Assembly: GCA_028293765.1 (NCBI GenBank)
Contig: JAQGOG010000210.1
Span: 1 to 64,000, forward strand
Length of the DNA stretch: 64,000 bases
Direction of reading: 5' to 3'
Source: Gammaproteobacteria bacterium
GTDB taxonomy: Bacteria > Pseudomonadota > Gammaproteobacteria > Steroidobacterales > Steroidobacteraceae
The translations under genes and the position numbers were made by a program. The notes below the pieces were generated by a model that saw only the letters and a list, made by a program, of their open reading frames with translations, did not search any database and had not been told where the DNA came from. Positions 52,800 to 62,617 of this stretch are shown one piece after another; the first letter of the stretch is position 1, and each line of letters starts with the position of its first letter.

Positions 52800-52806
52800 T
52801 CCCCCA

Positions 52807-52941
52807 CTCATCGAGACCGGCTGAGGGATAAGGCCCTTAGACGCCGGGGCAACCGCCAGACTTAACCACTCTGGAAAGGTGCCAACTCCTGCAGGTTGCG
52901 CACTTTCGGCTTCGGTCGAAGGTTCGGGACCGACAGATGAG
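52807..52941 (+). promoter_or_regulatory. SAM-I (S-box) riboswitch
   Basis: The P1 stem pairs CTCATC (52807-52812) with GATGAG (52936-52941). Between them lie the S-box core elements GAGGGATAAGGCCC, the GACGCCGGGGCAACC segment and AAGGTGCCAACTCCTGC, in the family's order and spacing. It should bind S-adenosylmethionine and turn down the methionine genes metX-metB when SAM is plentiful. No intrinsic terminator follows, so control is probably at translation. Confidence 0.9.
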
Positions 52942-53017
52942 CGGTATGCGTAGCCTCTAGCCCGGCGTTCCCGCCAGCGAGAGGATGGACGCGACAACCT
53001 GCCCTCATAGGGTAGGC

Positions 53018-53062
53018 GCTCCGCAGCAGGACGGTGAGTACCGTGCCAGTGGTTTGCGGAGC
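53018..53062 (+). promoter_or_regulatory. Stem that can hide the metX ribosome binding site
   Basis: GCTCCGC (53018-53024) is perfectly complementary to GCGGAGC (53056-53062), which contains the GGAG site 5 bases before the metX ATG at 53067. The stem would block ribosome entry. This is the likely expression platform of the riboswitch and supports the 53067 start over the GTG at 53034, which lies in the loop. Confidence 0.6.
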
Positions 53063-53066
53063 CTCC

Positions 53067-54158
53067 ATGAACGCCTCTCTCGAAGCCGTCCCGAACAGCG
53101 CCAGAGCGCAGCTTACGCCCGTTCCGTCGTCCGCTCCCGATAACGGCGTGCGGGAGGGCATTCTCGAGGTGCCCGGCGAAGTCTCCCTCTATCACGGCGG
53201 AAAGCTGTCCGGCATGCGGATCGCCTGGCGCATGGTTGGGCCGGCGAATGCCCCGGTCGTGTGTGCGTTGGGGGGCATCTCCGCGAACCGGCGTGTGTTC
53301 GTGACCGAGGATCCCAAGCAGGGCTGGTGGTCCGAAGTAGTCGGCCCCGAGCGATCCCTCGATGCGAACCGCTTTCGCGTTCTGAGCTTCGACTACCTCG
53401 GCGGGAGCGCCGAGACCACCGGGCCTGCCGGAGAGTCCACACGGGCTTCCGGGGAGGTCACGGGAGCTAACCTCGCGCCGTTTCCCAGTATCTCGAGCTA
53501 CGACCAGGCCGAGCTGTTGGTGCGCCTCCTGAACAATCTGGGTCTCAAATCACTGCGCGCGATCGTCGGCGGCTCTTACGGCGGCATGGTTGCACTGGCT
53601 TTTGGCGAGCGCTATCCGGAGCGCGTTGGCCACCTGATCGTGATAGGCGCGGCGGATCGGACGCATCCGATGGCTACCGCGTGGCGAAGCGTGCAGCGAC
53701 GGATCGTTCGCTTTGCGGCCGAATGTGGTCGCGGAAAGGACGGCCTGCAGCTGGCGCGCGCGCTGGCGATGTCGACCTATCGCAGCTCGGAAGAGTTTGC
53801 GGCGCGCTTCGACGGTGCGCCCGCTAGCAACGGCGAACGCTTCGAGTTTCCGGTCGAGCGATATCTGTTCGCGCGCGGCAGCGACTTCGCGGACCGCTAC
53901 AAGCCGGAAGCCGTTCTGTGTCTGTCGGAATCCATCGACCTGCATCGCGTGGACGCGGCGCGAATTTTCGTACCCACGACGATCGTGGCCATCCGTGAAG
54001 ACCAACTCGTGCCGCTTGCGGACATGCGCGGACTGGCCGCGCGGTTACCCGTCGCGAAGCTGCACGAGATTTCCTCTATTTATGGGCATGATGCTTTTTT
54101 GAAGGAGTCGGATCAATTGCGCGGAATATTCGTTGCGGCCCTTGGGAGTGCCGCATGA
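53067..54158 (+). CDS. metX: Homoserine O-acyltransferase (MetX type)
   Basis: 363 residues from the ATG at 53067. This alpha/beta hydrolase acylates homoserine, the first committed step to methionine. The nucleophile lies in IVGGSYGGMVALAFGERYPE; the acid is probably Asp in AIREDQLVPLAD and the base His in IYGHDAFLKE. The N-terminal region has VVCALGGISANRRVF and RVLSFDYLGGS. The GGSYGG variant and this layout resemble the succinyl-CoA-using MetX enzymes of Xanthomonadales-like bacteria, but acetyl versus succinyl donor is not certain. It overlaps metB by 4 bases and is under the SAM-I riboswitch. Confidence 0.9.
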   Translation: MNASLEAVPNSARAQLTPVPSSAPDNGVREGILEVPGEVSLYHGGKLSGMRIAWRMVGPANAPVVCALGGISANRRVFVTEDPKQGWWSEVVGPERSLDANRFRVLSFDYLGGSAETTGPAGESTRASGEVTGANLAPFPSISSYDQAELLVRLLNNLGLKSLRAIVGGSYGGMVALAFGERYPERVGHLIVIGAADRTHPMATAWRSVQRRIVRFAAECGRGKDGLQLARALAMSTYRSSEEFAARFDGAPASNGERFEFPVERYLFARGSDFADRYKPEAVLCLSESIDLHRVDAARIFVPTTIVAIREDQLVPLADMRGLAARLPVAKLHEISSIYGHDAFLKESDQLRGIFVAALGSAA

Positions 54159-55369
54159 GCAAGAATTCGAAGCCGGCGCGTCCGCGCCAGATCACGCAGA
54201 CAGTGCGAGCGGGTCTCGAGTGCGACGACGCCACCGGGTGCGTCGTACCTCCGATTCACCTGACTTCGACTTTCGCTTTCCGCGGCTTCGGGCAGAAGCG
54301 CAGTTACGACTACACCCGCTCGGGAAATCCGACCCGCGATCTGCTGGGCGCGGCGCTCGCGGAATTGGAACTCGGCGCTGGAGCGGTTGTGACCGCGACC
54401 GGCATGGCCGCGATCACGCTCGTCGGATACTTGATCCCAGCGAAAGGGCGGATCGTCGCTCCTCACGATTGTTATGGCGGCACGTACCGCTTGTTCAACG
54501 TCTGGCACCAGCGCGGCGAGCGTGAGGTCGAGTTCGTGAATTTCGGCGATGAAGCCGCGGTTCGCGCGGCATTGTCAAAGCCGACTGCATTGCTCTGGAT
54601 CGAGACGCCGAGCAATCCGCTGTTGCGTATCACGGATATCGAGGCCTTTGCGGCGCTCGGAAAAGCAGCCGGCGCATTGCTCGTCGTGGACAACACGTTC
54701 CTCTCCCCTGCGTGGCAGCAGCCACTCCCCCTCGGGGCGGATCTCGTCGTGCACTCGACGACGAAGTATCTGAACGGGCACAGCGACGTGGTGGGCGGTG
54801 CCGTCGTAGCGAAGGACGCGAAGCTGCATGAGCAACTCGTGTGGTGGGCAAACTGTCTCGGCATCACCGGCGCGCCGTTCGACAGCTTCATGACCCTGCG
54901 CGGAATGCGGACGCTGCATGCGCGGCTCGATCACCATGGGCGCAACGCAATGGGCCTTGCGCAGTGGCTGAATGAGCAGCCCGGCGTGAAGCGCGTGTAC
55001 TACCCCGGTCTGCCGAGTCATCCGGGTCATGACATCGCCCGGCGACAGCAGAGCGGTTTCGGCGCGATCGTGAGCCTCGAGTTGGAAGGCGGTCACGACG
55101 CCGTGCGCGAATTCGTTGCCGAGCTCGAGTACTTCTCGCTCGCGGAATCGCTCGGAGGAGTCGAGAGCCTCATCGCTCACCCCGCCACGATGACCCACGC
55201 CGCAATGGATCCCGCAGCCCGCCTCAAGGCCGGCCTGGCGGACGGACTTCTACGGCTGTCGGTTGGAATCGAGGCGCTCGAGGACCTGCAAGCGGATCTG
55301 GCGGCAGGCCTGGAGCGTGCGGCCGCCGTCGGCAAGGTGGCGACTCGAAGGCTAGGAACTGCGGGCTGA
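54155..55369 (+). CDS. metB: Cystathionine gamma-synthase/O-acylhomoserine sulfhydrylase
   Basis: 404 residues of the Cys/Met metabolism PLP family. PIHLTSTFAFRGFG, DYTRSGNPTRDLLGAALAEL, TATGMAAITLVGYLIPA, VAPHDCYGGTYRLF and DNTFLSPAWQQPLPLGADLV are visible, and VVHSTTKYLNGHSDVVGGAV carries the PLP Lys. The C-terminus has SLGGVESLIAHPATMTHAAM. It joins acylhomoserine with cysteine (or sulfide) to give cystathionine (or homocysteine). Its operon partner is metX (ATGA overlap). A hairpin (GCGGGCT 55361-55367 with AGCCCGC 55372-55378) spans its stop codon. Confidence 0.92.
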   Translation: MSKNSKPARPRQITQTVRAGLECDDATGCVVPPIHLTSTFAFRGFGQKRSYDYTRSGNPTRDLLGAALAELELGAGAVVTATGMAAITLVGYLIPAKGRIVAPHDCYGGTYRLFNVWHQRGEREVEFVNFGDEAAVRAALSKPTALLWIETPSNPLLRITDIEAFAALGKAAGALLVVDNTFLSPAWQQPLPLGADLVVHSTTKYLNGHSDVVGGAVVAKDAKLHEQLVWWANCLGITGAPFDSFMTLRGMRTLHARLDHHGRNAMGLAQWLNEQPGVKRVYYPGLPSHPGHDIARRQQSGFGAIVSLELEGGHDAVREFVAELEYFSLAESLGGVESLIAHPATMTHAAMDPAARLKAGLADGLLRLSVGIEALEDLQADLAAGLERAAAVGKVATRRLGTAG

Positions 55370-55395: not shown

Positions 55396-56466
55396 TCAGC
55401 CTCGCGCGGGCAACCGCGCGAGCACCGCGTCTCCCATCTCCCGAGTCGACAACGCGCGCTCGCCTTGAGCCACGATGTCCGGAGTCCGGGCGCCGCTTTC
55501 GATAGCCAGTGTTACAGCGTTCTCGATTGCTTCGGCTTCCGCGTCCAAGCCCAACGAGTGCCGCAGTAACATCGCGACGCTCAGGATCGTCCCGACAGGA
55601 TTCGCAATTCCTTTGCCGGCAATGTCGGGCGCTGAGCCGTGAATCGGCTCATACACGCCCCGCTTACCGTCGCCAAGGGAGGCGGAGGGCGATAGCCCAA
55701 GCGATCCCGCAAGCATCGATGCCTCGTCCGTCAGGATGTCGCCAAACATGTTTTCCGTCACGATGACGTCGAAGTCCCGCGGTCGCCGAATGAGATGCAT
55801 GGCCGCGGCGTCGACCAGAACGTGCTCCAAAGCCACGTCCGGAAACTCCGCACGCATGACCCGCGCGCAGACCTCGCGCCACAGACGCGAAGTCTCGAGC
55901 ACATTGGACTTGTCGATGGAAGTGAGCTTGTGACGCCGCCGCTGCGCAAGCCGAGCGGCGACACGCGTGATCCGCTCGATCTCCGCTACCGTATACGTGC
56001 AAACGTCCGTAGCGCTATTCGCATCGCGCTTCTTCTCGCCGAAGTAGATGCCGCCCGTCAGTTCGCGGACGAACACGAGGTCGACGCCTTCCAGAATCTG
56101 CGGCTTCAGCGTCGACGCATCGACCAGAGCGGGCAGCACCTTGACCGGCCGCAGATTCGCGTAAACCCCAAGCTCCTTGCGCAGTTTCAGCAGACCCTGT
56201 TCAGGCCTCACCGTCGCATCAGGTGCCGACCACTTCGGGCCACCGATGGCCCCGAGCAGCACCGCGTCCGCTTTCAAGCACGCCTGCAGCGTTTCCGAGG
56301 GCAGGGGATCGCCATGCGAGTCGATGGCGACGCCGCCGAAAGGCAGCTCCGTGATGCCAATCTCGTGACCGAACGACTTCGCTGCCGCGTGCAGGCAGCG
56401 CAACCCTTCCGCGACGACTTCAGGGCCGATGCCATCGCCGCCGAGAACCGCAATATGAGCCTTCAT
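55396..56466 (-). CDS. leuB: 3-Isopropylmalate dehydrogenase
   Basis: 356 residues. It oxidises and decarboxylates 3-isopropylmalate in leucine synthesis. Typical stretches are [85 protein letters not shown] and [20 protein letters not shown], followed by [20 protein letters not shown]. Length is standard. It is the last gene of the ilv-leu operon, overlaps leuD by 4 bases and converges with metB. Confidence 0.97.
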
Positions 56467-57035
56467 ACGCGCCGCTCGTATGCCTCGATCTCGCCCATGC
56501 GCCCGAGGAGAAAGCCGAGCTCGTCGATGCCGTTCAACAGGCAGTAGCGCGAAAAGGCCTCGATCGGAAACTGCACCCGAGCGCCGGTAGGCAGCGTCAG
56601 CATCGCGGAGTCGAGATCGATGGTCACTTCGGCACCCGGATGCTCGATGAGCCAGCGATTCGTGGACTCATCGACCACGACGGGCAGTAGCCCGTTCTTC
56701 AGTGAGTTACTGCGAAAGATGTCGGCGATCTCCGTGCTGATGACGGCACGGAAGCCGTAGTCGAGCAGGGCCCACGGGGCGTGTTCGCGTGACGACCCGC
56801 AGCCGAGATTACGACCCGCGACGAGTACTCGGCACCCCTGTGCTTCTGGACGGTTGAGCACGAAGTCCGGTCGCGGCGTGCCCTGCGCGTCGTAGCGCCA
56901 GTCGGCGAAAAGATTCCGGCCGAGTCCTTCACGCGTGGTCGTCGTGAGAAAGCGAGCAGGGATGATCTGGTCCGTGTCGATATTCGTGGCCGGCAACACG
57001 GCTGTGCGTGAGTGCAAAGTCTTAATCGGTTCCAT
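56463..57035 (-). CDS. leuD: Isopropylmalate isomerase small subunit
   Basis: 190 residues, the swivel subunit of isopropylmalate isomerase, working with LeuC. It has [46 protein letters not shown] and [20 protein letters not shown]. Length matches proteobacterial LeuD (about 200, slightly short). It starts 6 bases after leuC and its stop overlaps the leuB start. Confidence 0.96.
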
Positions 57036-57041
57036 CAGTGC

Positions 57042-58454
57042 TCAACCGTTCATCAATTCGCGGGGGTCGGTCACACGCCCGCGCACGGCGCACGCGGCAG
57101 CCGTCAGCGGGCTCGCAAGCAGCGTTCGGGCGCCGACGCCCTGGCGGCCTTCGAAGTTACGATTACTCGTGCTGACCGAATACTGGCCCTTCGGGACCAG
57201 GTCGCCGTTCATGCCGAGGCACATGGAGCAGCCGGACTCGCGCCACTCGGCGCCGGCCTCGATGAAGACCGTGTGCAGCCCTTCGGCTTCCGCCTCTTTC
57301 TTGACCTGCTGCGAGCCAGGGACGACGAGCATCTGCACGCCCTTGGCAACCTTGTGGCCGCGGAGCAGGTTGGCGGCGCTGCGCAGGTCGGACAGCCGCG
57401 CGTTCGTGCAGCTGCCCAGAAACACGACGTTGACCAGCTGATCCTTGATCGCCGCTCCGGCTTCCAGACCCATGTACGCCAGCGCCTTCTCGAAAACCAC
57501 GTCGCCCTTCTTCACGGGAATCGCACCCGAGATAGGAATGACCATGCCCGGGTTCGTGCCGTACGTAATCATCGGCTCGAGCGTGGTGGCGTCGATGTCG
57601 ATTTCCTTGTCGAAGCGCGCACCGGCGTCGGAGGGAAGCTGTTTCCACCGCTCGAGCGCATGCTCCCAGTCGGCGCCCTTCGGCGCACGCTGTCGACCCG
57701 AGAGATAAGCGTAAGTCGTCTCGTCGGGCGCGATCATCCCCGCACGCGCGCCGGCTTCGATCGACATATTGCAGACAGTCATGCGCTCGTCCATGTCGAG
57801 CGCGCGAATGGTCTCACCGCGGTACTCGATCACGTGTCCGGTGCCGCCTCCGACGCCGATCTTGCCGATGATGGCCAGGATCAGATCCTTGGCGGTGACG
57901 CCGGCGCGCAGCCGGCCGCTTACGTTGATCGAGAACGTCCGTGCCTGCCGCTGCAGCAGGCATTGCGTGGCGAGAACGTGTCCCACCTCGGTTGTGCCGA
58001 TACCAAAGGCGAGTGCTCCGACGGCACCGTGCGTGCTGGTATGACTATCGCCACATACGATGGTCTTGCCGGGCTGCGTGATTCCGCTCTCCGGTCCGAT
58101 GATGTGCACGATTCCACGCTGCGCGCTGCGCAACCCGAGAAGCTCCACGCCGAAGGCGGCACAGTTGGTTTCCAGCTCGCGCACCTGCTTGGCGGCGGAG
58201 TCGATCGAGATCGGCGCGCCCCCGAAGACCTGCTCCGTGCGGGTCGGGGTGGAGTGGTCCATCGTGGCCAGGGTGAGGTCGGTGCGGCGGACCGGCAGGC
58301 CGCGCTCACGCAGAACCGCGAACGCCTGCGGCGAGGTGACCTCGTGGATGAGGTGAAGGTCTACGTAAAGAACGGCGGGAGTATCGGCGGTCTCGGCCGT
58401 CACCAGGTGACGGTCCCAGACTTTTTCGAACATCGTTTGCGGTGCGCGTGGCAT
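57042..58454 (-). CDS. leuC: Isopropylmalate isomerase large subunit
   Basis: 470 residues from the ATG at 58454. This [4Fe-4S] enzyme of the aconitase family interconverts 2- and 3-isopropylmalate. It shows [48 protein letters not shown] and [19 protein letters not shown]. Cluster cysteines lie in [20 protein letters not shown] and [13 protein letters not shown]. Length is standard (about 466-470). It starts 22 bases after the ilvE stop. Confidence 0.97.
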
Positions 58455-58476
58455 GAGGTGTTCGTCTCGAGGACGT

Positions 58477-59439
58477 TTAACCGGCCGCCACAGCGGCGCG
58501 GGGCGCGGCCATGTCAACGTAGTCGAGCCAGCCCCATTTGTCGGCGGTCTTGCCCGTGAACAGGCCGAAGAACGCGTTCTGCAAAGTCTCCGTAATGGGT
58601 CCGCGCTTGCCGGCGCCGACCGTGAGTCGATCCACCGAGCGGATCGGAGCGATCTCGACCGCGGTGCCCGTAAAGAACGCCTCGTCGGCGATGTAGAGGA
58701 GTTCTCTCGGGATCGCGCACTCGCGGACCTCGATGCCGCGTTCCTTCGCGAGACGTATGACGGCATCGCGCGTAAGGCCCCCGAGAACGGAGTGCGCGAG
58801 CGCTGGAGTCATCAGCACGCCGTCCTTGACCACGAAAATGTTCTCCCCGGAGCCTTCACTCACCGTGCCGTCCGAAGACAGCCCGATGCCTTCGGCAAAG
58901 CCGAGGCGGCGCGCCTCGGCGCCGATGAGCTGGCTCGAGAGGTAATTGCCTCCCGCCTTGGCGAGAGCGGGGATGGTGTTGGGAGCGACTCTCTGCCATG
59001 ACGAGATGCACACGTCCACGCCCTGTTCTTCGCTCTCGTGCCCGAGGTACTTACCCCACTCCCATGCGGCGATGGCCACGTCGGTCGGAGGTTCGATCTT
59101 GGGCGACACGCCGATCTCGCCGTAACCGCGAAAGGCTACCGGACGGATATAGGCGCCACGAACCAGTTCGTTGCTCGCAATGACCTGCCGGATGGCGTCA
59201 TTTATCTGCTCCGGCGCAAACGGCATGGTCATGCGGTAGATCTTCGCGGAATCGAACAGCCGGCGCGTGTGATCGCGCAGGCGGAAGACAGCGACGCCGC
59301 TGGGTGTCTCGTAGGCGCGCACGCCTTCGAATACCGACGACCCGTAGTGCAACGCATGCGACAGCACATGCACCGTGGCTTTTTCCCAGGGCACGAGCTT
59401 GCCGTTGAACCAGATGAATTGCGTGGCGGGAATGGGCAT
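58477..59439 (-). CDS. ilvE: Branched-chain amino acid aminotransferase
   Basis: 320 residues, PLP fold type IV. Visible are [73 protein letters not shown] (the Lys binds PLP), [17 protein letters not shown] and [20 protein letters not shown]. It performs the last step of leucine, isoleucine and valine synthesis. It sits between leuA (48-base gap) and leuC, inside the leucine operon. C-terminal Ala-rich residues are a small extension. Confidence 0.96.
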
Positions 59440-59487: not shown

Positions 59488-61068
59488 CTAGACCGCGGTC
59501 TGCGCCACTCGTGCGGCGCCAGCGCGCTCGTCACGCGAGCGGGTGCCCGCTTGCGAGAGCTCGATGCGATTGATGACTTCAAGGAAAGCTTTCGTGCTCG
59601 ACTCGACGATGTTCGTGCTGACGCTCGAGCCGCGATAGGTGCGCTGATTGTACTCTACGTACACGACGGCCTCGCCCTGCGCATCCTCGCCTTCGGTGAC
59701 GCCGTGCACTTCGAACTTACGCAAAATGACGTTGATGCCGGTGGCGGCTTCAATCGCCTTGAACGCTGCATCCACGGGTCCGTCGCCTTCGGTAGTGCGC
59801 TCGACGACGCGGCCGTCCGCATGCTGCAGCCGAACCACGGCCTGCGCAGGGACGTTGCTATGAGCGACCGTCTGCAGATCCAGCAGACTCCACGGCCCGC
59901 TGGCCGAGCCTTCCGCACGCAGCACCAGCGCCTCGATATCGCCGTCGAAGAGTTCCTTCTTCTTGTCCGCGAGCGCCTTGAATTCCTCGAATACGCGATT
60001 GAACTCGAGCTCATCGAGCTCGAAGCCCAGCGCCTTCACGCGATCCCGGAACGCATGCCGGCCGCTGTGTTTGCCGAGGACGAGGTGGCTGCGGGAGAGA
60101 CCTACATCCTCGGGACGCAGGATTTCGTACGTGGAATGATGCTTGAGCATCCCGTGCTGGTGAATGCCGGCCTCATGGGCGAACGCATTCTCACCCACGA
60201 CTGCCTTGTTGCGCGGGATCGGCATGCCAGTGATGCTGGAGACCAGCCGCGACGTCGGATAGAGGCGGTTGGTCTGAATACCCGTCGTGACATTGAAGAA
60301 CGCTTCGCGCGTCTTCAATGCCATGACGACTTCCTCGAGCGAGCAGTTCCCCGCGCGCTCGCCTATGCCGTTGATGGTGCACTCGACCTGGCGCGCGCCC
60401 GCGACGACGGCCGTCAGGCTGTTCGCGACCGCCATGCCGAGATCGTCGTGGCAGTGGACCGACAGCCGGATGCCGTCGATGCCGCGCACGTTTTTCCGTA
60501 AATAGCGGAACAGCTCCGCGAACTCATCCGGAACCGTGTAGCCCACCGTGTCCGGTATGTTGACAGTGCTCGCCCCGGCCTCGATCGCCGCCTCGACGAC
60601 TTGTGCGAGGAACTCGAGCTCCGTGCGGGACGCGTCCTCCGGCGAGAACTCCACGTCATCGCACAGGCCCCTGGCGATGCGAACGCCCTCCACGGCGGTC
60701 CGGATGATCTCCTCCTGCGCCATGTTGAGCTTGTACTGCCGATGGATCGCACTGGTTGCCAGAAAGACATGGATGCGGTGCCGGGGCGCGTCCCGCAGTG
60801 CCCGCGCCGCCAGCTCGATGTCTTCCCGGTTACAGCGGGCCAGGCCGCAGATCGTCGCGCCCTGGACCTCGCGGGCCACCGCATTCACGCTCTCCCAATC
60901 CCCACGCGAGGCGGCCGGAAATCCCGCCTCGATCACATCCACACCGAGCTCGGCGAGCTGCCGTGCGACCCGTACCTTTTCCGGCTGGGTCATGCTGCAG
61001 CCGGGCGACTGCTCGCCATCGCGCAGGGTGGTGTCGAAGATCAGTACTCGGTCGGGATTGGGAGTCAT
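59488..61068 (-). CDS. leuA: 2-Isopropylmalate synthase
   Basis: 526 residues from the ATG at 61068. It condenses acetyl-CoA with 2-ketoisovalerate, the committed step to leucine. The TIM barrel has IFDTTLRDGEQSPGCSMTQP, LSVHCHDDLGMAVANSLTAV (metal-binding His pair), TINGIGERAGNCSLEEVVMA and FAHEAGIHQHGMLKHHSTYE. The C-terminal LeuA regulatory domain (about residues 390-505, GSASGPWSLLDLQTVAHSN) should give leucine feedback. Length fits the bacterial long form. It lies 93 bases after ilvC. Confidence 0.96.
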   Translation of the reverse strand: MTPNPDRVLIFDTTLRDGEQSPGCSMTQPEKVRVARQLAELGVDVIEAGFPAASRGDWESVNAVAREVQGATICGLARCNREDIELAARALRDAPRHRIHVFLATSAIHRQYKLNMAQEEIIRTAVEGVRIARGLCDDVEFSPEDASRTELEFLAQVVEAAIEAGASTVNIPDTVGYTVPDEFAELFRYLRKNVRGIDGIRLSVHCHDDLGMAVANSLTAVVAGARQVECTINGIGERAGNCSLEEVVMALKTREAFFNVTTGIQTNRLYPTSRLVSSITGMPIPRNKAVVGENAFAHEAGIHQHGMLKHHSTYEILRPEDVGLSRSHLVLGKHSGRHAFRDRVKALGFELDELEFNRVFEEFKALADKKKELFDGDIEALVLRAEGSASGPWSLLDLQTVAHSNVPAQAVVRLQHADGRVVERTTEGDGPVDAAFKAIEAATGINVILRKFEVHGVTEGEDAQGEAVVYVEYNQRTYRGSSVSTNIVESSTKAFLEVINRIELSQAGTRSRDERAGAARVAQTAV

Positions 61069-61161: not shown

Positions 61162-62157
61162 TTACGTGCGTTTCTCGTTCAACCACGGCATCCGCGCACG
61201 CAGCGCGCTGCCGACTTTCTCGATCTGCCGGTCCTTGTCCTGCTTGAGCAGCTTCTGGTAGTTCTTCCCGCCAGCCGCGCTCTCCTCGATCCACTGCTTC
61301 GCGAACTTGCCGGTCTGCACTTCCTTCAGGACCTTGCGCATGACGTTCTTGACGCGGTCGTCGATGATGCGCGGCCCGCGCGTCAGGTCGCCGTACTTCG
61401 CCGTGTCGCTGATGAACTCGTGCATCTTGGTCAGGCCGCCCTCATGCAGCAGGTCCACGATGAGCTTCAGCTCGTGCAGGCACTCGTAGTAAGCGACCTC
61501 GGGCTGGTAACCCGCTTCCACCAAGGTCTCGAAGCCCTTGACCACGAGCTCGGTGGCTCCGCCGCACAGCACAGCCTGTTCCCCGAAGAGATCCGTCTCG
61601 GTCTCCTCAGCGAACGTCGTCTCGAGGACGCCGCCGCGTGTTCCGCCAATTCCGTGCGAGTAGGAGAGGGCCTTGGCGTGCGCCTTGCCCGTCGAGTCCT
61701 GCGCCACGGCGATGAGACACGGCACGCCGCGGCCTTCCTGGTACTGGCGGCGGACGAGACCGCCGGGACCTTTGGGCGCGATGAGGACGACGTCCAGATC
61801 CTTGCGCGGCTTGATCTGCTTGTAGTGGATGTTGAAGCCGTGCGCGAACAGCAGCGTCGCACCCTTCTTCAAATTGTTCTCAACCGCCGCGTAGAGATCT
61901 TTCTGCGCAAGGTCGGGCACGAGCATCGCAATGAGGTCCGCACCTTCTGCTGCGGCGCCCGGCTCGGCGACGGCGAGACCGTCCTTCTTCGCCTTCTTCC
62001 AGCTCGCTCCCCCCTTACGAACGCCCACCACGACGTCGAAACCGCTGTCCTTCAGGTTCAGCGCATGCGCCCGGCCCTGGCTTCCGTAGCCCAGCACCGC
62101 GACCCGCGCGCCCTTGAGGGCCTTCTTGTCGACATCTTTCTGCGAATACAGCCTCAT
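61162..62157 (-). CDS. ilvC: Ketol-acid reductoisomerase, class I
   Basis: 331 residues from the ATG at 62157, with GGGAG 8 bases upstream (an ATG at 62172 lies before that site). It isomerises and reduces acetolactate and acetohydroxybutyrate with NADPH in valine and isoleucine synthesis. [20 protein letters not shown] is the dinucleotide-binding loop; [40 protein letters not shown] and [20 protein letters not shown] follow. The short length marks class I. It heads the operon behind a leader-peptide attenuator. The acetolactate synthase and IlvD genes are not in this operon. Confidence 0.97.
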
Positions 62158-62237
62158 TAAGCGAACTCCCAACGGCCCCGCGGGCCAAAAAAACTCACGC
62201 CCAGGAAAATCGGTTCAATAGCAACCCTGAAGCATAA

Positions 62238-62275
62238 AAAACCCCGCACCGGCTGGTGGGCCGGTGCGGGGTTTT
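62238..62275 (-). terminator. Attenuator terminator of the ilv-leu operon
   Basis: On the reverse strand a perfect 16-bp stem (AAAACCCCGCACCGGC with GCCGGTGCGGGGTTTT) encloses a 6-base loop and ends in six T (62241-62236). It lies between the leader peptide stop and ilvC. An alternative pairing partner upstream (62325-62338) allows anti-termination. On the forward strand only four T precede a C, so a reverse-strand role is better supported. Confidence 0.92.
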
Positions 62276-62307
62276 CGGTCTCTTCGCTCGCTCGTGCCTT
62301 GGTTCTC

Positions 62308-62442
62308 TCAGGCGTTCGCGAGTGCCCCGCACCGGCTGCTCCTCAGGAGCAGAAGTCCTACCGGCACTACGAGAAGAACAGGCGCGAGCCGCAGCCCACA
62401 GGGCGCGTTCGGGCTCAGGTCGGTTCGCGTCTCGGATGCCAT
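62308..62442 (-). CDS. ilv-leu operon leader peptide
   Basis: 44 codons starting at an ATG (62442) and ending at TGA (62308), 32 bases before the terminator stem. Residues 22-33 read VLLVVPVGLLLL: six Leu and four Val in twelve codons, using codons such as CTT and GTA. This is the control region expected of a branched-chain attenuator; no Ile codons occur in it. A short hairpin (CTGCTCC 62336-62342 with GGAGCAG 62346-62352) covers the four-Leu block. A ribosome stalled for lack of charged Leu- or Val-tRNA would free the next segment to disrupt the terminator. No strong ribosome binding site precedes the ATG. Confidence 0.82.
   Translation of the reverse strand: MASETRTDLSPNAPCGLRLAPVLLVVPVGLLLLRSSRCGALANA
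62325..62352 (-). promoter_or_regulatory. Anti-terminator and pause hairpin segment
   Basis: On the reverse strand CAGCCGGTGCGGGG (62338-62325) repeats the downstream arm of the terminator, so it can pair with that stem's upstream arm (CCCCGCACCGGC, 62271-62260 read on the reverse strand). It also joins a CTGCTCC/GGAGCAG hairpin (62352-62336) over the Leu codons. These are the alternative structures needed for attenuation. Confidence 0.78.
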
Positions 62443-62480
62443 GGGCGCCACGGATAAGCTGAGGGCAAAATGATGGTCCG

Positions 62481-62510
62481 ATGTGATCACACCCGCCGCG
62501 ACTTTGTCAA
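62481..62510 (-). promoter_or_regulatory. Putative ilv-leu promoter
   Basis: A perfect TTGACA (reverse strand, 62510-62505) is followed after 18 bases by TCACAT (62486-62481), a weak -10 element. Transcription would start about 30 bases before the leader peptide ATG. Confidence 0.5.
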
Positions 62511-62617
62511 CGCGTGGGGGCCGCGGATCGCTGGCTGACTTCCAGGCCGGCAATGCAGACCGCGTGCTTTTGCAGACGCAGACAGGCCGGGAGCACTTTC
62601 GTTAAGCTTCCGTGGTG

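What the first reader, a model, noticed from the sequence alone, without database searches (positions are those of the whole stretch)
62236..62510. Leader-peptide attenuator controlling ilvC-leuA-ilvE-leuCDB
Upstream of ilvC the reverse strand carries a TTGACA element, a 44-codon reading frame with VLLVVPVGLLLL at residues 22-33, a hairpin across the Leu codons, and a CAGCCGGTGCGGGG segment identical to one arm of a perfect 16-bp terminator ending in six T. All parts of a classical attenuator are present and in order. The control codons are Val and Leu only, with no Ile, although ilvC also serves isoleucine. The leader (44 codons) is longer than the E. coli leuL (28). Attenuation of branched-chain operons is established in proteobacteria; this instance and its gene order are read from sequence.
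Basis: partly seen in the sequence, partly recalled or inferred. Interest (0 to 1): 0.85.

Follow-up and report, generated by a model that had tools for sequence, protein, structure and literature searches.

The report
Branched-chain amino acid operon leader attenuator
A short throw-away peptide rich in leucine and valine sits in front of a bacterial amino-acid operon together with RNA hairpins that should switch the operon off when these amino acids are plentiful; the kind of switch is well known, but this family of it is conserved across related bacteria and was not found named in the RNA library or the papers searched.

Summary
In 34 aligned leaders upstream of ilvC (window plus 33 relatives), 34 keep an open frame from a conserved ATG/GTG to a stop (29-46 codons), with Ile/Leu/Val codons dense 12-23 codons before the stop. 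A folding model of the RNA before terminator arm 4 emerges makes the antiterminator likely exactly when a ribosome stalls on those codons, and unlikely two codons later. Third bases of two segment-2 codons are invariant although free to vary synonymously. It is very probably a ribosome-mediated attenuator of the known kind, mainly a leucine sensor. Corrections: 'no Ile' is not a family trait; the Leu-codon hairpin is weakly supported; full-length equilibrium folding shows no switch; and the perfect terminator is the exception. Of 60 loci with C at base 8 of arm 3, 59 have a non-pairing base opposite in arm 4 and only the window pairs, while segment 2 pairs with that C in 34 of 34. No expression data; no Rfam family fits.

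The parts
62505..62510 (-). -35-like TTGACA
   Evidence: columns invariant or nearly so in 34 leaders, L082 departs
62481..62489 (-). extended -10-like TG-A-TCACAT, 18 nt between the hexamers; TG and the T....AT anchors are invariant in 34 leaders
   Evidence: invariant columns T45 G46 T48 A52 T53; not found by the consensus scan; promoter function inferred
62308..62442 (-). leader peptide frame, 44 codons plus TGA, MASETRTDLSPNAPCGLRLAPVLLVVPVGLLLLRSSRCGALANA
   Evidence: conserved start and open frame in 34 of 34 leaders
62344..62379 (-). control codons 22-33 (4 Val, 6 Leu), codons -23 to -12 before the stop
62336..62352 (-). hairpin over the Leu codons (CTGCTCC/GGAGCAG); possible RNA polymerase pause hairpin
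   Evidence: weak support
62325..62335 (-). segment 2 (CCGGTGCGGGG), 5' arm of the antiterminator, inside the leader frame
62287..62322 (-). hairpin holding the leader stop codon, between segments 2 and 3
   Evidence: 88.6% of cells paired in 34 leaders; 3 cells with double changes
62260..62271 (-). segment 3 (CCCCGCACCGGC), shared by antiterminator and terminator
   Evidence: identical in 34 of 34
62242..62253 (-). segment 4 (GCCGGTGCGGGG), 3' arm of the terminator; base 62249 is G here and a non-pairing base in the relatives
62236..62241 (-). terminator U-tract (six T)
61162..62157 (-). ilvC, ketol-acid reductoisomerase
   Evidence: NF004017, TIGR00465 over cut-off
59488..61068 (-). leuA, 2-isopropylmalate synthase
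58477..59439 (-). ilvE, branched-chain aminotransferase
57042..58472 (-). leuC
56463..57035 (-). leuD
55396..56466 (-). leuB

Best explanation
A ribosome-mediated transcription attenuator in front of the ilvC-leuA-ilvE-leuC-leuD-leuB operon. A ribosome follows RNA polymerase through the leader frame. With enough charged tRNA-Leu (and Val, and Ile in relatives) it runs past the control codons and covers segment 2 while segments 3 and 4 emerge, so the 3:4 terminator forms and transcription stops at about 62236. When it stalls on the control codons (12-23 codons before the stop), segment 2 is free, pairs with segment 3 before segment 4 is made, and polymerase reads on into ilvC. Shown here: anatomy, conservation, agreement of codon position with the folding model. 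Inferred: promoter, translation of the frame, termination, and the response to amino acids.
For: Frame open in 34 of 34. Ile/Leu/Val density peaks at codons -12 to -23 (29, 34, 30 and 28 of 34 at -12 to -15; 10 to 32 of 34 at -16 to -23), with only isolated peaks in the other two frames. Third bases of codons -8 and -6 in segment 2, where synonymous changes are possible, are G in 34 of 34, and -7 varies only C/T (31/3), which keeps a pair. Antiterminator model: mean P 0.82-0.96 with the A-site at codons -24 to -12, 0.53 at -11, 0.13 at -10, 0.00 at -9 to -2. Rare codons enriched in the 18 codons from -27 to -10: CTT 27.8% of Leu against 6.7% in 33 long window ORFs, GTA 48.9% of Val against 8.3% (related sequences, not independent). 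Covariance-model hits opened as loci: 27 of 29 (L115-L143) lie before ilvC, 1 before leuA, 1 at a contig end (several are among or near the sequences the model was built from). In one same-genus genome (G002) ilvC is not in the operon and the attenuator sits before leuA-leuC-leuD-leuB, with a control run of Leu without Val or Ile.
Against: Full-length equilibrium folding gives the terminator in 34 of 34 (no ribosome), 34 of 34 (ribosome at stop), 32 of 34 and 33 of 34 (stalled at -15, -20). With the ribosome at the stop codon the truncated model still gives P(antiterminator) of at least 0.5 in 15 of 34, and 0.83 in the window. Segments 3 and 4 are nearly invariant, so covariation cannot test the two main stems (no double changes). 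Leu or Ile codons also occur outside the control zone (Leu at -4 in 23 of 34, Ile at -2 in 12 of 34). At least two genomes of the same genus gave no model hit (G206, G269; not looked into). No clear Shine-Dalgarno was seen by eye before the leader start. No expression data.
Confidence: 0.93

Rival explanations
1. A constitutive partial terminator after a chance short frame: the hairpin trims transcription but does not sense amino acids.
For: The terminator is stronger than the antiterminator at full-length equilibrium in nearly every state. A sublineage (L022, L024, L025, L028) has a hairpin near ilvC and no Ile/Leu/Val-rich frame was reported there.
Against: 34 of 34 frames open with Ile/Leu/Val codons fixed in position relative to the stop; synonymous third bases of segment 2 held for pairing with segment 3, which a plain terminator does not need.
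Confidence: 0.04
2. A small functional hydrophobic peptide encoded upstream of ilvC, with the terminator serving it rather than ilvC.
For: The peptide has a hydrophobic run and its C-terminal RCG is conserved.
Against: The N-terminal half is unlike between the relatives and lengths run 29-46; the C-terminal conservation follows RNA pairing at synonymous sites.
Confidence: 0.02
3. A metabolite-binding riboswitch or T-box leader rather than a translated leader.
For: None found; some structure between segments 2 and 3.
Against: No Rfam family at gathering score in the region; best sub-threshold match F6 sRNA at E 0.055 on the other strand, the rest 0.16 or worse; codon patterning needs translation.
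Confidence: 0.01

Closest known systems
E. coli leu and ilvGMEDA / ilvBN leader attenuators (named in PMC1183508, passages seen; structural details recalled)
   Same: Leader peptide rich in the regulated amino acids, antiterminator 2:3 against terminator 3:4, U-tract, before a branched-chain operon.
   Different: Here ilvC heads one operon with the leu genes; segment 2 lies inside the leader frame 14-24 nt before the stop; a stop-codon hairpin lies between 2 and 3; no strong 1:2 protector in the model; no match to an Rfam leader at cut-off.
Corynebacterium ilvBNC attenuator / ilvB-II motif (PMC11857589 and PMC10272879, passages seen)
   Same: Branched-chain leader peptide before a terminator/antiterminator pair; CUU and GUA named as control codons in C. 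glutamicum, the same rare codons enriched here.
   Different: Different phylum, 15-residue leader, different operon (ilvBNC); the RNAs were not aligned here.
Staphylococcus aureus leucine-rich attenuator peptide (PMC5794164, title and start of abstract in the search listing only)
   Same: A leucine-rich attenuator peptide acting on branched-chain synthesis.
   Different: Firmicute, with CodY as a second layer; sequences not compared here.

Membership tests
Ribosome-mediated (leader-peptide) transcription attenuator | Short translated frame with a cluster of codons for the end-product amino acid | tested here: met
   Frame and cluster conserved in 34 of 34; translation itself not tested
Ribosome-mediated (leader-peptide) transcription attenuator | Intrinsic terminator between the leader frame and the first gene | tested here: met
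   Segments 3:4 in 34 of 34, followed by a T-run that is broken within six bases in L009, L005 and L085 and ends at five T in a few others; termination not measured
Ribosome-mediated (leader-peptide) transcription attenuator | Mutually exclusive antiterminator using the 5' arm of the terminator | tested here: met
   Segment 2 pairs with segment 3, 95.5% of cells over 11 pairs
Ribosome-mediated (leader-peptide) transcription attenuator | Ribosome position at the control codons frees segment 2; further travel covers it | tested here: met
   Model only, truncated RNA, assumed footprint -15/+12; the full-length equilibrium model does not show it
Ribosome-mediated (leader-peptide) transcription attenuator | 1:2 protector or pause hairpin | tested here: inconclusive
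   Covariation score not reached in 500 shuffles, but stability beyond synonymous resampling in only 6 of 34
Ribosome-mediated (leader-peptide) transcription attenuator | Termination relieved by starvation for the amino acid | not testable with these tools
   Needs transcript data
Any Rfam 15 leader or riboswitch family | Covariance-model score at or above the gathering cut-off | tested here: not met
   Only the SAM riboswitch at 52805-52943 in the window; nothing over cut-off in 62150-62600 (Thr_leader 19.5 of 55 bits)

The most novel reading that the evidence does not exclude
The terminator of this attenuator family carries a selected handicap: one position in the stem (the eighth pair counted from the CCCC end of arm 3) is kept unpaired in segment 4 while segment 2 pairs there perfectly, so that segment 4 cannot easily displace an antiterminator already formed. 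The window's species has lost the handicap by one base (62249 = G) and should be biased to termination. The handicap is reached differently in sister groups (mismatch, single-base bulge, 2x2 loop).
Probability: 0.35. Interest if true: 0.5.

Novelty: new member of a known kind. Interest (0 to 1): 0.36.

Why it matters
It gives a group known largely from metagenome assemblies (Steroidobacteraceae and neighbours) a well-supported regulatory RNA that Rfam lacks, and a clean comparative set: dozens of natural variants with one invariant three-way pairing, one repeatedly unpaired position, one genome that restored it, and one where ilvC is not in the operon. That makes it testable how terminator and antiterminator strengths are balanced in attenuators.

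Tried and rejected
The Leu-codon hairpin as a classical protector: weak. Covariation as proof of the main stems: not possible, most columns are invariant. The idea that the window is an outlier in terminator-minus-antiterminator energy: not so. The window is 6th lowest of 34 at -3.3 kcal/mol (range -8.0 to +8.3; 21 of 34 positive), although its hairpin alone is the most stable (-28.0, against a mean of -21.7 and a range of -26.9 to -18.0 in the other 33). The idea that separate ilv genes carry an Ile-coding attenuator: no Ile/Leu/Val-rich frame was flagged in the 800 nt before the one over-cut-off ilvB, ilvD and ilvA of this genome. The idea that control codons track operon content: G002 without ilvC is Leu-only, but L004, which keeps ilvC, has no Val or Ile in its run either, so this is an anecdote. 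The internal imperfection as a universal rule: of 15 more distant leaders picked by hand from earlier listings, 12 have one (11 with gammaproteobacterial titles, L050 titled only Proteobacteria; L029 and L030 are also in the 65), but 3 are perfect (L033, L053, L068: titles Sphingosinicella, Sphingomonas, Robiginitomaculum). A first script read minus-strand genome-search loci in the wrong orientation; redone.

Full report
What was checked. The minus strand at 62510-62236 was read directly. In the alignment, however, TG at 62489-62488 and the T, A and T of TCACAT at 62486, 62482 and 62481 are invariant in 34 leaders, which suits an extended -10 promoter. The operon genes were confirmed as ilvC, leuA, ilvE, leuC, leuD and leuB.

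Where it is. The window belongs to a 6.6-Mb genome in 211 contigs. IlvC relatives at 75-97% identity carry titles of Steroidobacteraceae, Steroidobacter and unclassified Gammaproteobacteria or Proteobacteria. ilvC followed by leuA, with or without a matched ilvE, then leuC, leuD and leuB, convergent with metY and metX, recurs in many of them.

Conservation of the leader. Of 51 distinct loci with IlvC identity of about 70% or more, 7 were set aside (L021, L022, L024, L025, L028: no leader frame seen; L029, L030: distant) and 44 prepared. Of these, 34 were aligned; the 10 left out were L010, L011, L014, L015, L016, L017, L019, L020, L026 and L027. In the 34, the start is at the same place (12 ATG, 22 GTG) and the frame is open to the stop in all (29-46 codons), while the N-terminal half is not conserved. 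Counted back from the stop, Ile/Leu/Val codons are dense at -12 to -23 (34 of 34 at -13, fewest 10 of 34 at -16). The other two frames show isolated peaks only, and Leu also stands at -4 in 23 of 34. Over the 18 codons -27 to -10 there are 255 Leu, 47 Val and 22 Ile, so this is best called a leucine sensor with Val/Ile input. CTT and GTA, rare in 33 long ORFs of the window (6.7% of Leu, 8.3% of Val), make up 27.8% and 48.9% there. In the C. glutamicum ilvBNC leader CUU and GUA are named as the control codons (PMC11857589, passages seen). Among distant leaders and others called automatically, the Ile/Leu/Val run is weak in some (L010 5, L017 4, L139 5, L142 6 of 12 codons); those frame calls are uncertain.

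RNA structures. Segment 3 (CCCCGCACCGGC) is identical in 34 of 34. It pairs with segment 2 in 95.5% of cells and with segment 4 in 91.7%; sliding the partners gives at most 49%. There are no double changes, as expected where one strand must fit two partners and segment 2 also codes. Separate evidence for the antiterminator is that the third bases of codons -8 and -6, where synonymous changes are possible, are G in 34 of 34, and codon -7 changes only between C and T. A hairpin holding the stop codon lies between segments 2 and 3 (88.6% of cells paired, 3 cells with double changes; its covariation does not clear the shuffles, 56 of 500 as high). The Leu-codon hairpin shows 11 double-change cells, not reached in 500 shuffles, but only 6 of 34 fall in the most stable 5% of synonymous resamples (mean z -0.87).

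How it should work. At equilibrium with segment 4 present the terminator wins in nearly every state. If the RNA is cut at the end of segment 3, the state that should decide the outcome, mean antiterminator probability is 0.82-0.96 with the ribosome A-site at codons -24 to -12, 0.53 at -11, 0.13 at -10 and zero at -9 to -2 (assumed footprint -15/+12). The control codons thus end where stalling stops being useful. Without a ribosome the mean is 0.75 (27 of 34 at or above 0.5; window 0.999), and with the ribosome at the stop 0.37 (15 of 34; window 0.83). If true, untranslated leader RNA would read through, unlike the E. coli trp leader (recalled). This is a model result only.

The terminator handicap. 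The base of segment 4 opposite base 8 of segment 3 pairs in 1 of 34 leaders, the window itself, whereas the segment 2 base opposite the same C pairs in 34 of 34. Over 65 unique loci, 60 have C at that place of segment 3; its partner is C in 40, A in 17, U in 2 and G in 1, the window. The other 5 (L019, L022, L024, L025, L028) have another base there and no comparable register. On an IlvC tree of 55 rows (10 of the 65 dropped as leaderless, distant or lacking a full ilvC) this column needs at least 8 changes, and the single G is a tip beside L002, which has C; L002 shares 97% IlvC identity with the window. Of 15 more distant leaders picked by hand, 12 have an internal bulge, mismatch or loop in the terminator and 3 (L033, L053, L068) are perfect. 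I read this as selection to keep segment 4 a poorer partner than segment 2. It is suggestive, not proof: with only about 8 changes, avoidance of one base could happen by chance, and the window is not extreme in terminator-minus-antiterminator energy (6th lowest of 34). That the mismatch limits slippage between the direct repeats is not excluded. The restored pair in the window rests on one assembly.

Distribution. A covariance model from 30 leaders (24 of the 34 plus 6 of the 10 distant) finds one strong site in the window's genome. Its other hits there are the reverse strand of the same hairpin and two weak matches at E about 0.5. Over the order it hits 154 of 296 genomes at E 0.01 or better; weak hits may be ordinary terminators, and at least two genomes of the same genus had none (G206, G269). 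Of the 29 new loci opened (L115-L143), 27 precede ilvC, 1 precedes leuA and 1 is at a contig end. Hits in three genomes of two other families (G039, G053, G051) also lie just before ilvC (coordinates). No Rfam family covers it at cut-off. Nine paper searches (lists capped, 12 of 76 shown) listed no title on this leader. The 2004 survey of proteobacterial attenuators by Vitreschak and co-workers (recalled) did not appear in the listings, so an earlier prediction for nearby groups cannot be excluded.

Verdict. Ordinary in kind, well founded and usefully conserved: a new member of a known kind, with one unusual design detail in the terminator.

Noticed in passing
52805-52943 (+): SAM riboswitch (RF00162, 70.9 bits) before a homoserine O-succinyltransferase MetX and a cystathionine gamma-synthase-like gene (53034-55369, +), convergent with leuB.
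   Followed up: partly
L022, L024, L025, L028 (upstream of ilvC): A set of relatives with no Ile/Leu/Val-rich leader frame flagged: a shared TTGCATCATAAGAG..TGCTATT promoter-like block is followed by a long-loop CCCCGC/GCGGGG hairpin with a poor U-tract, and leuA was not matched next to ilvC. Attenuation may have been lost or replaced.
   Followed up: no
L163 / L162 (G002): In a same-genus genome ilvC and ilvE are not matched in the operon; the attenuator stands before leuA-leuC-leuD-leuB with a Leu-only control run, and a 56%-identical ilvC elsewhere showed no such leader by eye.
   Followed up: partly
G000:C173:64320-65924 (just beyond the window): ilvD lies divergently, about 1.8 kb upstream of the leader promoter; the over-cut-off ilvB and ilvA are on another contig, C196.
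   Followed up: partly
L026, L027 (Steroidobacter): Leader control run is richer in Ile/Val (for example IIVVERVVVSGLL in L027) than in Leu, and the terminator has two adjacent mismatches.
   Followed up: no
62442 region and relatives: Leader starts (22 of 34 GTG) seem to lack a clear Shine-Dalgarno sequence; seen by eye only.
   Followed up: no
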